DNA from: Streptomyces erythrochromogenes
Lineage (GTDB): Bacteria > Actinomycetota > Actinomycetes > Streptomycetales > Streptomycetaceae
Assembly (NCBI RefSeq): GCF_036170895.1
Contig: NZ_CP108036.1
Coordinates: 1,860,001-1,924,000, forward strand
Length of the DNA stretch: 64,000 nucleotides
Direction of reading: 5' to 3'
In this document: piece after piece, positions 16,111-21,638 of the stretch
How positions within the stretch are numbered: the first letter of the stretch is position 1
How the letters are laid out: the number at the start of each line of letters is the position of its first letter
The notes under the pieces: model-generated
Seen by the model: the letters and a program-made list of their open reading frames with translations, nothing else
What the model was told of the DNA's origin: nothing
The model's database searches: none
Made by a program: the position numbers and the translations under genes

Positions 16111-17862
16111 CTAACAGCTGCCGGGGCCGGGCGCCGCGTCTGGTACGGCCAGTCCAGTGACACCGCGCCGGTCCGCGGCGGCGCGGGTGAGGTGGGGCGG
16201 GGTGGCCGAGGGGCGTTCCTTGCGGACGAAGGCGCGGCGGAGGGCGTGGTAGGGGGCGTGCGGGTCGAAGAAGGTCCGCCGCATCCGCGCCAGCTCGGCC
16301 TCCCGGTGGGCGGCCAGCGGGCGCCGCGCCTCGTCGCGCTCGCGTGCGGCCTTCTTCGCGGCGGTCCGGGAGGCGGTGGCGGGCAGGGCGGCGAGACGGA
16401 CCGCGAGGCGCTGCGTCTCGCGGGGGAAGTCCCCGGCCGCGCAGGGGACCGTACGGTCGACCAGCCCGAGCCGCTGCGCGGCGGCGGCGCCCAGCGGCAG
16501 GGCCTCGGTGGTGAGGCGGTCCGCGAGGGCGGGGCCGACGCGCCGGGGCAGGGTGTACGTCCAGTACTCGGAGCCGTACAGCCCCATCAGGCGGTAGTGC
16601 GGGTTCAGGACGACGCCGGAGCGGCACCAGACCTCGTCGGCGGCGAGGGCGAGCATGGCGCCGCCGGCGGCGGCGTTGCCGCCGAGGGCGCTGACCACGA
16701 GGCGGTCAGTGGTCGTCAGAACCGCCTCGACCAGGTCGTCCATGGCGTTGATGTTGGCCCAGGACTCCTCGGCGGGGTCCGCGGCGGCCTCGATGACACC
16801 CAGGTGGATGCCGTTGGAGAAGAAGTCGCGGCCGCCGCCCAGGACCAGGACGGTGGTGGGGCGGGTGCAGGCGGTCCGGTACGCGTCCAGCAGGCGGCGG
16901 CAGTGCGCGGTGCTCATCGCGCCGCCGGGGAAGGAGAACGTCAGGAAGCCGGTCTGGCCCTCCTCGTGGTAGCCGATGTCGGACCAGGCGGGGCGGTACG
17001 GGCCGGCGTCCGGCGGTGCGGGCAGTTCGGGCAGCGGGGGCAGCCGGTCGAGCCGGTCCGCGAGGGCGAGCGTCGCGGGCAGCCGGGGGGTGGCGGGCCG
17101 GCCCGGCAGCCGGGGGGCGCGCAGCTCGGGGATCCACACGGCCCCGTCGGCCGTGGCGCGGCACACCGCGCCGGCCCGGGTGGCGAGGAGCTCGCCGGGG
17201 CGGCCGCGCAGGCCGTCCTCGCGGTGGCCGCCGTGCAGGTACCAGTCGGCGCCGAGCAGGTGGTCGCGTACGCCGGGCTGCGAGTCGGCGGCGCGCAGGA
17301 CCCGCAGGACGCGCTCGGTGCCGTCCGCCGCCCAGTCGATCCGGCGGTCCTCCTGGCGCACGGGCGGCCGGGCCCGGCCACCGGTCTGGGGGGGCGGGAC
17401 GTACGTGCCGGAGGCGAAGCGCTCGACGGCGAGCAGGACGGCCTCCAGCGCCGCGTCGGCGATCTCGCCGCGGTAGAGGTCGCTCTTGCCGACGGGGGGC
17501 ACCGGGCAGTCGGCGGTGGCCCAGACGTCCCCGGCGTCCATCTCGGCGTTGGCCTGGAGGACCGTGACCCCCCAACGGGTCTCGCCGTCCTGGACGGCGT
17601 GGTCGAGGGAGGAGGGGCCGCGGTCGCCGACCGGTCCCGGGTGGACGACGAGGCAGGTGTACGCGGCCCAGACGTCCTCGGGGATGGCGGTGCGCAGCAT
17701 GGGCGCGAGGACGAGGTCGGGCCGGTGGCGGCGCACGGTGTCGCCCAGGGGGGCGTCGGGCAGGGCCAGTTCTACGGCCACCCGGTGGCCGTGGTCGCGC
17801 AGCTCGGCGTGGACTCGCTGGGTGAGGCTGTTGAACGCGCTCGCGACGAGCAGGACGTACAC
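16111..17862 (-). CDS. hypX: Hydrogenase maturation protein HypX/HoxX (aerobic CO-ligand synthesis)
   Basis: HypX makes the active-site CO ligand in air from N10-formyl-tetrahydrofolate via formyl-CoA. The 583 aa show an N-terminal formyltransferase-like region with VVHPGPVGDRGPSSLDHAV (H74) and a C-terminal enoyl-CoA hydratase/crotonase-like region from about 290 (GFLTFSFPGGAMS, GGRDFFSNGIHLGV, SALGGNAAAGGAML). The GTG at 17862 gives the normal start VYVLLVASAFNS and has GGGAG five bases upstream; the open frame continues upstream only as repeat-island translation. As first gene of the structural unit, its presence fits hydrogenase maturation under fully aerobic growth. Confidence 0.92.
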   Translation of the reverse strand: MYVLLVASAFNSLTQRVHAELRDHGHRVAVELALPDAPLGDTVRRHRPDLVLAPMLRTAIPEDVWAAYTCLVVHPGPVGDRGPSSLDHAVQDGETRWGVTVLQANAEMDAGDVWATADCPVPPVGKSDLYRGEIADAALEAVLLAVERFASGTYVPPPQTGGRARPPVRQEDRRIDWAADGTERVLRVLRAADSQPGVRDHLLGADWYLHGGHREDGLRGRPGELLATRAGAVCRATADGAVWIPELRAPRLPGRPATPRLPATLALADRLDRLPPLPELPAPPDAGPYRPAWSDIGYHEEGQTGFLTFSFPGGAMSTAHCRRLLDAYRTACTRPTTVLVLGGGRDFFSNGIHLGVIEAAADPAEESWANINAMDDLVEAVLTTTDRLVVSALGGNAAAGGAMLALAADEVWCRSGVVLNPHYRLMGLYGSEYWTYTLPRRVGPALADRLTTEALPLGAAAAQRLGLVDRTVPCAAGDFPRETQRLAVRLAALPATASRTAAKKAARERDEARRPLAAHREAELARMRRTFFDPHAPYHALRRAFVRKERPSATPPHLTRAAADRRGVTGLAVPDAAPGPGSC

Positions 17863-18040
17863 GTGGTCTCCCGGCGGCGACCCGGAGCCGCCGCGTCGCG
17901 GTGCCGGGCCTGTTCGGCGGCTGGTGACCGGCGCACGACCGGCCGCCTGCGATGCTCGTCCCCTTCGGGCGGGGGGCGGCCGAAGCGGAGCGGCGATGTC
18001 ACCCGAAAGCGCCGGGGGGCACGGCCGCTCGGCCCACGCC

Positions 18041-18400
18041 CTTGCCCTGGCCGGGCGGTGCGGGATCCGACTCCGGGGCCCTTGCCCTGGCCGGGCCGTA
18101 CGGGATCCGACTCCGGGGCCCTTGCCCTGGCCGGGCCGTACGGGATCCGACTCCGAGGCCCATGCCCTGGCCGGGCCGTACGGGATCCGACTCCGAGGCC
18201 CATGCCCTGGCCGGGCCGTACGGGATCCGACTCCGAGGCCCATGCCCTGGCCGGGCCGTACGGGATCCGACTCCGAGGCCCATGCCCTGGCCGGGCCGTA
18301 CGGGATCCGACTCCGAGGCCCATGCCCTGGCCGGGCCGTACGGGATCCGACTCCGAGGCCCATGCCCTGGCCGGGCCGTACGGGATCCGACTCCGGGGCC
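18041..18400 (+). repeat. Nine tandem 40-bp repeats
   Basis: Exactly nine 40-bp units run from 18041 to 18400. Each contains CGGGATCCGACTCC, spaced at 18061, 18101 and so on to 18381, plus CCTTGCCCTGGCC or CCATGCCCTGGCC. Units 4-8 are essentially identical; units 1-2 and 9 have CTCCGGGGCC instead of CTCCGAGGCC, and unit 1 has GCGGTG for GCCGTA. Each later unit contains the palindromes CCGTACGG and GGATCC joined through their GG. There are no unique spacers, so this is not CRISPR. Confidence 0.97.
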
Positions 18401-18519
18401 ACGGCCCCGGGCCCCTGCCCTTGCCGGGCCGGGATCCGGGCGCGGTGTGGCCGGGCCGTGGCATCGCGGTACGGGCGGAATCCATGCCCCGTGCGGGCGG
18501 GTCGCGGTGCCGCGGAGGG

Positions 18520-18805
18520 GTGTCTCCTCGGCTCGCGCGTGCGAGGGGTTCGTCCTGTGCGGGGTGGTTGCGCGCTCGTCCTGCGGGGACACCCCTCCCC
18601 GTCCCCGCTCCAGCAGTACGAGCCCGGTTCCGGGGCGCCATCCGTGCCGGCCCGGAGCGCGCAGTACGGGCGTGTCCCCCTGCACGGGCAGGAGTACCGG
18701 AGCGCTGGCGTGGGGTGGGGACACGGCGGAGTGTCCCCGCAGGACGAGCGCGCGACCCAGGCCGCCTCGCCGAGACACCCCGCACGCGCCGAGCCGAGGA
18801 GACAC
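18520..18805 (+). repeat. Long imperfect inverted repeat
   Basis: The arm 18520-18593 (opening GTGTCTCCTCGGCTCG and closing CGCGCTCGTCCTGCGGGGAC) pairs with the reverse complement of 18731-18805. About 75-base arms are separated by 137 bases. Outer and inner thirds match almost perfectly; the middle is diverged. No transposase or target duplication is visible. It could be a large transcript hairpin, a miniature inverted-repeat element or a protein-binding structure. Confidence 0.85.
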
Positions 18806-18814
18806 TCCGGCGGG

Positions 18815-18938
18815 GCACCGCCCCACCCCATCCATCCCGCCCCACGACAACCCGCAACCCCGGCAGGAGCCGAGCGGCACCGCCCCACCCCATCCATCCC
18901 GCCCCACGACAACCCGCAACCCCGGCAGGAGCCGAGCC
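18815..18938 (+). repeat. 62-bp direct tandem duplication
   Basis: Two nearly identical 62-bp units start at 18815 and 18877, each beginning GCACCGCCCCACCCCATCC and ending in GGCAGGAGCCGAGC. A partial third copy (AACCCGCAACCCC) appears near 18966. The duplication lies just downstream of the membrane-protein gene at 18988 (minus strand), so it is within or beyond that gene's 3' region. Confidence 0.9.
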
Positions 18939-18987
18939 GCCGAAGGACCAAAGCCGCCCCGCGAAAACCCGCAACCCCGCCGGGAGG

Positions 18988-19359
18988 CTATTGGCGGTCT
19001 TCCAGGCCGATGGCCTTCTGGAGGTCCTTGTGGGCCTGGCCCCAGTCGCCCTCCTGTTGTTCCAGCAGGGCGGCCGCGATGGCGTTGAGTTTGACCTGGA
19101 TGGCGTGTTCCGCCCGGCGTTCGGAGTTCTTCAGCAGGGCCAGGAGGAGCAGGGCCACCGCGCCCATCGCGTCGCCGACCAGGTGCTGCCAGCTCGTGTC
19201 CAGATGGAGCAGGTGGACCACGATGAAGGCCGCCACGAGCAGGACGCAGAACACGGAGAAGCCGGCGGAGCTGGTGAGGTTGGAGGCCAGTTCCGCGAGC
19301 TTCGCGAACCGCCCCAGCTCGTTCTCGTCGCCCTCCTTCGCGGGATGCTCAAAGGTCAT
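18988..19359 (-). CDS. Small membrane protein, low-affinity iron permease-like
   Basis: A 123-aa protein with two hydrophobic helices (GFSVFCVLLVAAFIVVHLL at about 33-51 and LVGDAMGAVALLLLALL at about 60-76), followed by an amphipathic helix with HAIQVKLNAIAAALLE and a soluble tail. This two-helix plus cytoplasmic-helix layout matches the low-affinity iron permease family (PF04120) by memory. Transport of iron is not proven for bacterial members. ATG at 19359 (MTFEHPAKEG) is preferred; an in-frame upstream extension is possible but reads like non-coding sequence. Confidence 0.7.
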   Translation of the reverse strand: MTFEHPAKEGDENELGRFAKLAELASNLTSSAGFSVFCVLLVAAFIVVHLLHLDTSWQHLVGDAMGAVALLLLALLKNSERRAEHAIQVKLNAIAAALLEQQEGDWGQAHKDLQKAIGLEDRQ

Positions 19360-19605
19360 GCCCCACGCCTGCCCGCTCCGGGCACCTCGAACCACCCGGT
19401 TCGGCCGCTTGTGCCCGAAGGTGTCACTACCGGGCCGAACGGCCCATACGCGCGCCGGATTGACAGGATGTCCCCGCGCGAAAGGCTCGATTTCGCTCAA
19501 TCGGTTACGGCCATCCAGCATCCGGTCCCATCGTCACCGCTCGGACGCATCGCGCCCCGCCCCCTCCTCCCGCCCCGACCAGGGGTGGCCAAAACTATTC
19601 AGGCC

Positions 19606-19631
19606 GCCCGGAATTGCAGACAATTTCCGGC
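19606..19631 (+). promoter_or_regulatory. Inverted repeat upstream of acyl-AMP ligase promoter
   Basis: GCCCGGAATTG (19606-19616) faces CAATTTCCGGC (19621-19631), a near-perfect inverted repeat with one unpaired A, ending 13 bases before the -35 hexamer at 19645. It is an AT-rich spot in a GC-rich genome and is placed like an operator. The binding protein is unknown. Confidence 0.4.
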
Positions 19632-19644
19632 CATTCAATGCGAG

Positions 19645-19674
19645 TTGACCGCGCAGCGAGGGTCGACCTAAGGT
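19645..19674 (+). promoter_or_regulatory. Housekeeping-type promoter before the broken acyl-AMP ligase
   Basis: TTGACC (19645-19650) and TAAGGT (19669-19674) are separated by 18 bases, a good match to a Streptomyces HrdB-type promoter. It would give a 5' leader of about 310 bases before the ligase start. The rest of 19360-19995 shows no gene. Confidence 0.5.
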
Positions 19675-19995
19675 TTGGACCAGTGCTCCTGATCGCCGAG
19701 GACACGGTATGGGGAATTGATTGATTCGCCCCCGCACGTCCGCGCTGTGCTGCGGATCGAAACTCACCGGAAGAAAAGGTCGATGTTTGCGGATCAGGAT
19801 GCGATGGACGCCGGTTGCATGACCTCGTGTCATCCGACCCGGAGGGCCCCGCGCTTCCTCGTCCCCAGATCGGCCCCGTGAGTCCCGGAGCTCCGGCACC
19901 CCGAAGAAGGGGTATCCCGCGCGTTGCTCCCGTCATCCCGCCCGTCGGCCCGCACCCCGTGCGAGCCGACGATCCGGCACCGAATGAGGCTGAGA

Positions 19996-21638
19996 ATGCC
20001 TGCCGAACCGATGCATCACGAGACGGTGGTCGACGCCGTCCGCGCGCACGCCGCGCGCATACCGGACCATCCGCTGTTCACCTTCCTCCCCGACGGCGAG
20101 GAGGCCGAGCCCCCGCTCACCTTCGCGATGCTCGACGCCAGGGCGCGGGCCGTCGCCGCGAGCCTGCACGCCGCGCAGGTGGAGCCCGGATCCCGCGCGC
20201 TCCTGCCGTTCCAGCCCGGCCAGGACTTCGTCGTCGCGCTATTCGGCTGCCTGTACGCGGGCGTCGTCGCCGTGCCCGCGTACCTGCCCCACCCCGCGCA
20301 GCGCGCCCGCGGGCTGCTGCGGCTGGCCGGCATCGCCGAGGACGCGCAGCCCGCGGCCGTACTGACCACCGCCGGGATCCGGGCGGCCGTCGAGACGGCG
20401 GCGCGCACGATCCCGGATGTCCAGGAGGCGCCCTGGCTGGCGGTCGACACGATCGCCGACGGGGCCGGAGCGGGCTGGTCCGCGCCGTCCCCGGAGCCGA
20501 AGTCCGTCGCCTTCCTCCAGTACACCTCCGGTTCGAGCGGCCGGCCGAAGGGTGTGATGGTCACCCACGGCAACCTCACCCACAACACCGACCTCATCCG
20601 CACCTCGCTCGGGATGGACGGGTCCACGGTCGTCGTGGGGTGGCTCCCCCCTATCACGACATGGGACTGATCTCGATGATCATCGTTCCGGCGATGACGG
20701 GAATCCATTCCGTTTCCATGCCGACCGTGGCGTTCCTGCAGAGCCCGGTGCGCTGGCTGCGAGCGATATCGACGTCCGCGGAACGCTTTCCGCGGCCCCC
20801 AATTTCGCATTCGACCTGTGCACTCGAAAAGCGACCGACGAGGAACGTGCGGGCCTGGACCTTTCGTCCTGGCTGGTCGCGACGAACGGCGCCGAACCCG
20901 TCCGTGCCGATTCCATGAAGCGGTTCTCGGAGGAATTCGCCTCCACCGGGTTCCGCCCGGAAACCATCGTTCCGGTGTACGGGCTCGCCGAAAGCACACT
21001 GCTCGTGAGCGGGGCGCCCCTCGAACGGCCCTGGGTCCGGGCCTTCGACGAGGACGAGCTCGAACGCGGCACCGCGGTGAGCGTGCCTGACGACAGCCCG
21101 GCCGCGCGCGTCCTCGTCAGCTGCGGCACCAGCCGGACCCTGGACGTGGCCGTCGTCGACCCTCGGACGCGTGCGCGGTGCCGTCCGGGGCAGGTCGGCG
21201 AGATCTGGGTCGCGGGCGACAGCGTCGCCGTCGGCTACTGGCAGCGCCCCGACCTCACCCGCGAGGCCTTCGAGGCGACGCCGGTCGACGGCGGGGACCA
21301 GGGCCCGTACATGCGCACCGGCGACCTCGGCTTCCGGACGGAGGACGGCCTCTTCGTCTGCGGCCGCATCAAGGACGTCGTCATCGTGGGCGGGCGCAAC
21401 CACTACCCGCACGACATCCAGCGCACCGCCGAGAGCGCGCACCCCGCGATCCGCCCGGGCTGCGTCGCCGCCTTCGGCGTGGACGCGGACGGCGTGGAGC
21501 AGGTGGTCGTCGCCGCCGAACTGCGCCGCGAGCCAGGAGCCGCACATGGCCTCGGGCGCGGTACTGGTGGGAGCCCCCTCCTGCCAGGACAGCGCCGCGC
21601 TCGTCGAGCGGGTACGGACCTTCGTGGACCGGGCCTGA
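19996..21638 (+). pseudogene. Fatty-acyl-AMP ligase (FAAL-type), frameshifted and truncated
   Basis: The product would activate a fatty acid as acyl-adenylate, usually for loading onto an acyl carrier protein. The first frame (MPAEPMHHETVVDAVRAHAA) holds the A3 motif YTSGSSGRPKGVMVTH, then stops near 20670. Homology continues at GWLPP/YHDMGLIS only if one C is added to the six-C run at 20646-20651, and again if one C is added to CC at 20776-20777. A third frame carries GYWQRPDLT, YMRTGDLGF and GRIKDVVIVGGRNHYP. Near 21540 the frame slips again and the C-terminal lysine domain is missing. Either a decayed gene or homopolymer sequencing errors plus a true truncation. No carrier protein or PKS/NRPS partner is nearby. 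Confidence 0.8.

What the first reader, a model, noticed from the sequence alone, without database searches (positions are those of the whole stretch)
18041..18400. Nine-copy 40-bp tandem array in front of the hydrogenase unit
Nine exact-length 40-bp units without spacers sit about 180 bp upstream of hypX. Units 4-8 are almost identical, implying recent expansion or homogenisation. Each carries joined CCGTACGG and GGATCC palindromes, so the array offers many regularly spaced (about four helical turns) symmetric sites, as expected for cooperative protein binding or a variable-number locus.
Basis: partly seen in the sequence, partly recalled or inferred. Interest (0 to 1): 0.72.

Follow-up and report, generated by a model that had tools for sequence, protein, structure and literature searches.

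The report
Minisatellite in a dispersed palindromic repeat
The nine-copy 40-base array is real, but it looks like a local repeat expansion on the edge of a large hairpin-shaped repeat that sits at about twenty gene boundaries in this Streptomyces genome, so it is most likely a passenger beside the hydrogenase genes, not their switch.

Summary
The array is confirmed: nine contiguous 40-bp units at 18039-18398, the strongest array in the window. The hydrogenase reading is not supported. The array is the outer flank of a ~0.95-kb intergenic repeat whose core (18504-18821) is a long hairpin. That core lies at 19 places in this genome and in a few related Streptomyces, but is near background in most of 295 sampled. 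Most copies carry tandem arrays, often with their own unit. Addresses are conserved: 15 of 19 own sites share flanking genes with a core site in another species. Yet the nearest relatives of core arms are mostly in the same genome, not at the orthologous site, which is concerted evolution. At hypX, the unit occurs nine times here, once in S. amritsarensis, and its exact word in none of 70 other hypX upstream regions examined. CCGTACGG is absent from unit 1 and from the S. amritsarensis unit, so it is probably recent. A conserved block before hypX (17939-18009) also occurs without the array. Best explanation: an inherited, gene-converted, MITE-like palindromic repeat whose flank expanded locally. 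It is a new variant of a known kind; the closest analogue I saw is BrickBuilt of Porphyromonas.

The parts
18039..18398 (.). Array of nine 40-bp units: unit 1 is ancestral-type, units 2-3 transitional, units 4-8 identical
   Evidence: TRF; unit-by-unit comparison
18401..18503 (.). Left flank of the repeat element with degenerate GGATCC-containing sequence, shared with other copies
   Evidence: Own-genome hits to query positions 2-112 of 18401-18987; sequences
18504..18821 (.). Core of the dispersed element: long imperfect hairpin, nested inverted repeats I1 and I4
   Evidence: the repeat finder; RNA fold of 18490-18840, z -13.1 on + and -8.1 on -; profile hits
18814..18937 (.). Right-flank array: two identical 62-bp units; related units in other copies of the element
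   Evidence: TRF; sequences
18938..18987 (.). Right edge of the element, ending at the stop codon of the upstream gene
   Evidence: Own-genome hits reach query position 586; gene call 18988-19359
17939..18009 (-). Two conserved words of the hypX upstream region, CTTTCGRGTGAC (17998-18009) and ATCGCAGGCGGCCGG (17939-17953), present with or without the array
   Evidence: Up to 2 mismatches: 47 of 72 and 28 of 72 hypX upstream regions; 0.4 and 0.2 in shuffles (words chosen after reading); coordinates
16111..17862 (-). hypX: formyl transferase N and C domains plus enoyl-CoA hydratase domain
   Evidence: Pfam
18988..19521 (-). Small gene, weak Iron_permease match just under the Pfam cut-off; its stop codon borders the element (start uncertain)

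Best explanation
The array is a minisatellite that grew from one ancestral 40-bp unit in the outer flank of a non-coding, dispersed palindromic repeat. The family has 19 places in this genome, all intergenic by my gene calls and often touching stop codons. Shown here: the family, its hairpin core, the frequent tandem arrays, the conserved addresses, the concerted evolution, and the array's near-absence at hypX in relatives. Inferred: the element entered gene boundaries in an ancestor of this Streptomyces clade as a MITE-like insertion; copies are now mostly inherited vertically and overwrite one another by gene conversion; arrays grow by slippage or unequal recombination, perhaps because replication stalls at the palindrome. 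Any effect on hypX is incidental.
For: The flank 18401-18987 has 80 hits, which I group into 19 places of the own genome, at 68-100% identity; the other 18 are intergenic by my gene calls. An 18-mer of the core occurs 31 times here, 24 in G042, 24 in G269, 9 in G227, 9 in G199 and 3 in G039 of 295 Streptomyces genomes, against 0-3 in the other 289 (reversed-pattern control 0-3 per genome). Of 25 named genomes, S. amritsarensis 24, S. virginiae 24, S. xanthophaeus 26, NBC_01214 9, the other 21 have 0-2. Tandem arrays occur in 38 of 51 core-bearing regions against 20 of 107 long regions without a core; with period >=30 it is 34 of 53 core loci against 6 of 107. 15 of 19 own sites share flanking genes with a core site of another genome, 12 on both sides and 3 on one. 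The nearest relative of a core arm is in the same genome for 80.2 of 95 arms (18.9 expected, maximum 35 in 300 shuffles) and at the orthologous site of another genome for 2.0 (3.7 expected). Several core-free relatives have gaps of 17-202 bp at two tested sites. The unit gradient starts from an S. amritsarensis-like unit.
Against: No target-site duplication or exact end was resolved, and no transposase was linked to the element (only PF01797 was searched). At the two tested sites 11 of 29 core-free gaps are 319-1166 bp, some holding what looks like another gene, and 6 read 0, so the sites are not simply empty. Site s06 has a core in G269 but not in the otherwise close NBC_01214, so gain or loss still happens. 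Re-insertion at favoured sites could mimic part of the concerted evolution. A random same-genome arm is only slightly closer than an ortholog (42.3 against 35.0 of 78); the signal lies in nearest neighbours. 13 of 51 core-bearing regions show no array. Orthologous sites are not independent, so the Fisher values are rough.
Confidence: 0.68

Rival explanations
1. The element family is a functional chromosomal site: its long hairpin ends transcription from both sides of convergent genes, shields gene ends, or binds a nucleoid protein, and the arrays tune it.
For: 23 of 51 core-bearing regions lie between convergent genes, against 64 of 661 background gene pairs (Fisher 8e-10) and 9 of 107 long regions (3e-7). 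The paired stretches of both arms are largely invariant in the 33 cores I chose to align. Addresses are conserved.
Against: The U-tract terminator scan found nothing in 17863-18990. Only 5 of 53 predicted pairs have any double-sided change and the covariation term is about zero. Insertion between convergent genes is also simply the least harmful. Most sampled Streptomyces show only background counts.
Confidence: 0.2
2. The element is still a mobile non-autonomous element moved by a transposase elsewhere, and species re-colonise the same favoured sites.
For: 26 pairs of arms at different loci of one genome are identical over the aligned arm; s06 differs between G269 and NBC_01214.
Against: 15 of 19 own sites are shared with other species, which random re-insertion would not give. 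No Y1 (REP-type) transposase domain in 6 carrier genomes. No match of the core in the phage or plasmid collections. Other transposase families were not searched.
Confidence: 0.1
3. The array is a cooperative operator of the hydrogenase genes.
For: It lies 176 bp upstream of hypX and 29 bp upstream of a conserved block. The period of 40 bp is near four helical turns.
Against: CCGTACGG is missing from unit 1 and from the S. amritsarensis unit. Only 1 of 71 other hypX upstream regions examined holds even one exact unit word. Arrays with other units flank many other copies of the element. The unit does not fold unusually.
Confidence: 0.05

Closest known systems
BrickBuilt MITE with minisatellite, Porphyromonas gingivalis (PMC4596501; abstract and passages seen)
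   Same: Intergenic family with 19 copies in one strain; contains a spacerless minisatellite whose copy number varies; 'relative stability of locations' is stated
   Different: BrickBuilt has one 23-nt unit common to its copies and small inverted-repeat ends; here units often differ between copies, the centre is a large hairpin, and addresses are shared between species with within-genome homogenisation
REP / BIME palindromic repeats (PMC2817692, search listing with start of abstract seen; Higgins 1988, title seen in a reference list)
   Same: Intergenic palindromes in alternating orientation; evolution by gene conversion has been asked about for REPs
   Different: About 110-nt arms, where REPs are short (recalled); tens of copies, where the listing says over 100; no Y1 transposase domain found in six carrier genomes
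Bacterial VNTR / minisatellite (recalled category)
   Same: Tandem array with copy number differing between relatives
   Different: Tied to a dispersed palindromic element; arrays with different units stand beside many copies

Membership tests
MITE | Multi-copy, non-coding, intergenic | tested here: met
   19 places in the own genome by my grouping; the 18 others are intergenic by my gene calls
MITE | Length 50-1000 bp | tested here: inconclusive
   Window element about 0.95 kb; own intergenic regions 366-1391 bp; element ends not resolved
MITE | Terminal inverted repeats | tested here: inconclusive
   Strong inverted repeats in the core, but outer ends differ between copies
MITE | Target-site duplication | tested here: inconclusive
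   Gaps in relatives too diverged to resolve junctions
MITE | Cognate transposase with matching ends | not tested
   Only PF01797 was searched, with no hit
REP/BIME mobilised by RAYT | Y1 transposase (PF01797) in the genome | tested here: not met
   0 of 6 carrier genomes; control genomes ring in 5 of 14
Minisatellite / VNTR | Contiguous units, copy number varies between relatives | tested here: met
   9 here, 1 in S. amritsarensis, exact unit word in none of 70 other hypX upstreams examined; strains of one species not compared
Operator array of the hydrogenase genes | Symmetric site conserved between units and species | tested here: not met
   CCGTACGG absent in unit 1 and in S. amritsarensis; unit word absent in the other hypX upstreams examined
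Operator array of the hydrogenase genes | Bound protein or effect on expression | not testable with these tools
   Needs bench work
Known Rfam RNA | Match to a family | tested here: not met
   No match up to E = 1 in 17000-20000

The most novel reading that the evidence does not exclude
A set of about twenty fixed chromosomal addresses in one Streptomyces clade is marked by a palindromic element that is kept uniform within each genome by gene conversion, while its copies breed their own minisatellites. The family would be a maintained chromosome-organising or transcription-insulating system, with palindrome-driven array birth as its by-product.
Probability: 0.17. Interest if true: 0.75.

Novelty: new variant of a known kind. 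Interest (0 to 1): 0.47.

Why it matters
It turns an apparent hydrogenase switch into a genome-wide natural experiment. About twenty copies of one palindromic element sit at gene boundaries, many of them shared between species, homogenise within each genome, and mostly carry tandem arrays beside the core. That allows direct tests of how palindromes seed minisatellites and of how gene conversion acts on short non-coding repeats in Streptomyces. It also warns against reading such arrays as operators, and against short-read drafts, some of whose contigs start at the element.

Tried and rejected
Rejected: chance or artefact (the array dominates the TRF list, and its units form a gradient); CRISPR (no spacers); a coding repeat (40 is not a multiple of 3 and the array lies between genes); a structured RNA of Rfam (nothing to E = 1); REP/RAYT; phage or plasmid origin (no match; one stretch with the 18-mer in viral contigs, L309, which shows no core by profile). 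I asked whether the two arms of one element correct each other: no sign of it (0.739 against 0.736, higher in 19 and lower in 17). Covariation gave almost no support for selection on an RNA structure. The unit folds no better than shuffles. The scan for sigma-70 promoters and intrinsic terminators found none in 17863-18990. An exact 21-mer of the unit has no match in genome contigs, where records of this genome may be left out. Literature: searches listed no paper that I recognised as describing this family (listings only); five sequence words gave 0 papers. Only open-licence PMC papers are searched. Dropped before counts: 7 of 102 arm hits under 75% of the model; L266 (no core hit), L013 (duplicate of L242) and L028 (contig edge) before the 51 regions; hypX loci L098-L106, 9 of 80, were not examined.

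Full report
Observation. The array exists as described. TRF reports 18038-18400, period 40, 9.1 copies, 98% matches, no indels and score 670, the next row of the window having 248. Phased at 18039, units 4-8 are identical, units 3 and 9 differ from the consensus by one base, unit 2 by two and unit 1 by four. GGATCC is counted 9 times and CCGTACGG 8 times. The hypX start codon (GTG) is at 17862, 176 bp away; HypX and the [NiFe] large subunit are supported by Pfam. No close copy of the unit was found elsewhere in the own genome; one 78% match over 50 bases looks coding by eye.

The array is part of something larger. The stretch right of it, 18401-18987, gave 80 hits in what I group as 19 places of the own genome. 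Its centre, 18504-18821, is a long imperfect hairpin made of nested inverted repeats. Folded as 18490-18840 it is far more stable than shuffles on both strands (z -13.1 and -8.1). I read the other 18 intergenic regions in full. TRF finds tandem arrays in 15 of the 19 own regions, window included, often with different units: 77 bp x 6.1, 75 bp x 4.0, 95 bp x 4.8. The window's 62-bp pair at 18814-18937 is the array on the other side. On reading, at least eight of the 18 other regions carry GGATCC words in the flank, and in other species the outer arm can begin with TTGCCCTGGCCGGGC as in the window's first units.

Distribution. An 18-mer of the core (one mismatch allowed) occurs 31 times in this genome, 24 in G042, 24 in G269, 9 in G227, 9 in G199 and 3 in G039. 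In the other 289 of 295 Streptomyces genomes it occurs 0-3 times, near the level of the reversed-pattern control, 0-3. Among 25 named genomes, S. amritsarensis has 24, S. virginiae 24, NBC_01214 9 and S. xanthophaeus 26 hits, the remaining 21 have 0-2. Identical coordinates show that G042 is the S. virginiae genome and G227 the NBC_01214 genome (inference). In a draw of 147 genomes of the order with a 19-mer, G465 (21 hits) and G508 (8) are probably further carriers, G455 has 3, and the 15 genomes outside Streptomyces have none. Phage and plasmid collections have no match to the core.

Setting. A profile of the core hits 53 of 54 loci searched (L266 is the miss, L013 duplicates L242). In 51 of them both flanking genes could be called: 23 regions are convergent, 20 codirectional and 8 divergent. 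The background, 661 gene pairs in 80 hypX loci, has 64 convergent pairs (Fisher 8e-10); of 107 long regions without a core 9 are convergent (3e-7). Tandem arrays are found in 38 of the 51 regions against 20 of the 107. For periods of at least 30 bp it is 34 of 53 core loci (within 700 bp) against 6 of 107. Some arrays lie inside the core. The gene calls come from my own codon-usage script, the background comes from one neighbourhood, and orthologous sites are not independent, so the odds are rough.

Conserved addresses, concerted sequence. The flanking proteins show that 15 of the 19 own sites have a core beside the same genes in at least one other genome: 12 on both sides, and 3 (the window, L170, L173) on one side only. 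I fetched only 32 stretches from other carriers, so the four remaining sites are not shown to be private. Yet the core arms (95 of 102 hits kept) do not follow the sites. The nearest relative is in the same genome for 80.2 of 95 arms (18.9 expected, maximum 35.0 in 300 shuffles), and at the orthologous site of another genome for 2.0 (3.7 expected). On a tree the label 'genome' changes 24 times and the label 'site' 69 times, though there are more sites than genomes. 26 same-genome pairs at different loci are identical and none of 160 orthologous pairs is. Of 78 arms with both kinds of partner, 62 have a match of at least 95% at another site of their genome and 5 at the orthologous site; but a random same-genome arm beats a random ortholog only 42.3 to 35.0. 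The homogenisation therefore works among groups of copies, as gene conversion would. The two arms of one element are not more alike than opposite arms of different elements.

State without the element. At two sites I read the orthologous gap in 20 other genomes. At s06 a core is seen in three of them. The S. amritsarensis contig ends too early, but one search places a core hit at base 11 of that contig. Sixteen gaps lack a core: six measure 48-153 bp, one 190 bp, three read 0 (my stop walk probably failed), and six measure 430-1155 bp, of which NBC_01214, G199 and S. xanthophaeus look coding by eye. At s02 a core is seen in three, four loci could not be spanned, and 13 lack a core: five gaps measure 17-202 bp, three read 0, and five measure 319-1166 bp. 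So the gap is short in several relatives, but the state before insertion is not uniform. G269 has the element at s06 and the otherwise close NBC_01214 has not, so gain or loss does occur.

The hypX site. S. amritsarensis has one unit there (CCCTTGCCCTGGCCGGGCGGTGCGGGATCC...), and unit 1 of the window is its close match. I examined 71 of the 80 other hypX loci, up to 1.5 kb upstream where the contig allows; only S. amritsarensis holds an exact unit word. S. virginiae has core sequence but no unit in the 498 bp held, and NBC_01214 shows no core match there. The gradient 1, 2, 3, then identical 4-8, suggests that CCGTACGG arose after unit 1 and spread by expansion. Between array and gene lie two words, CTTTCGRGTGAC and ATCGCAGGCGGCCGG, found with up to two mismatches in 47 of 72 and 28 of 72 hypX upstream regions (0.4 and 0.2 in shuffles); I chose the words after reading some of these sequences. 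They may be the hypX promoter region (inference). In S. avermitilis hypX is reported as a monocistronic operon (PMC4767420, passages seen).

Mechanism. I take the element to be a non-autonomous, MITE-like insertion of an ancestor, now mostly inherited and kept alike by gene conversion, with minisatellites born in its flanks by slippage. Shown: family, structure, addresses, concerted evolution, arrays. Inferred: origin by insertion, gene conversion as the process, slippage at a palindrome as the source of arrays, and lack of effect on hypX. Selection on an RNA fold is not supported, since only 5 of 53 pairs show any double-sided change among 33 cores that I chose.

Comparison. BrickBuilt of P. 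gingivalis, an intergenic MITE of 19 copies in one strain with a 23-nt minisatellite, is the closest analogue I saw (PMC4596501, abstract and passages). REP/BIME repeats resemble it in inverted pairing, but the Y1 transposase domain was not found in 6 of 6 carrier genomes. Searches listed nothing I recognised as this Streptomyces family; most subscription papers are not held.

Noticed in passing
window 17939-18009: Two conserved words with near-constant spacing upstream of hypX in many Streptomyces, a candidate hypX promoter region independent of the array
   Followed up: partly
L029, upstream of hypX (NBC_01214): No core match here, but a different sequence with ends that read as an inverted repeat (TCTTTCGGA / TCCGAAAGA) lies between the iron-permease-like gene and hypX
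   Followed up: no
G417 (S. virginiae) contigs C2, C30, C33, C39, C48: Core hits lie within about 130 bases of contig starts, as if short-read assembly breaks at the element, so drafts may undercount it
   Followed up: no
L009, L013, L247, L239, L240 and others: A recurrent word like GCCTCAAACGCCGGCGGGGCTG or its complement stands near array and core in several species; possibly a second repeat family
   Followed up: no
L239 and L240 (G269): What looks like the same 45-bp array with 3.2 copies stands beside cores at two different sites of one genome, so arrays may be copied between sites too
   Followed up: partly
L272, L274, L277 (site s06): Three carrier genomes have what looks like a small gene where other carriers have the element
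   Followed up: no
L175, right of the element: Sequence that by recall resembles RNase P RNA follows the element; not checked with Rfam
   Followed up: no
window 18988-19521: Small protein with an Iron_permease match just under the Pfam cut-off (24.8 against 25 bits)
   Followed up: no
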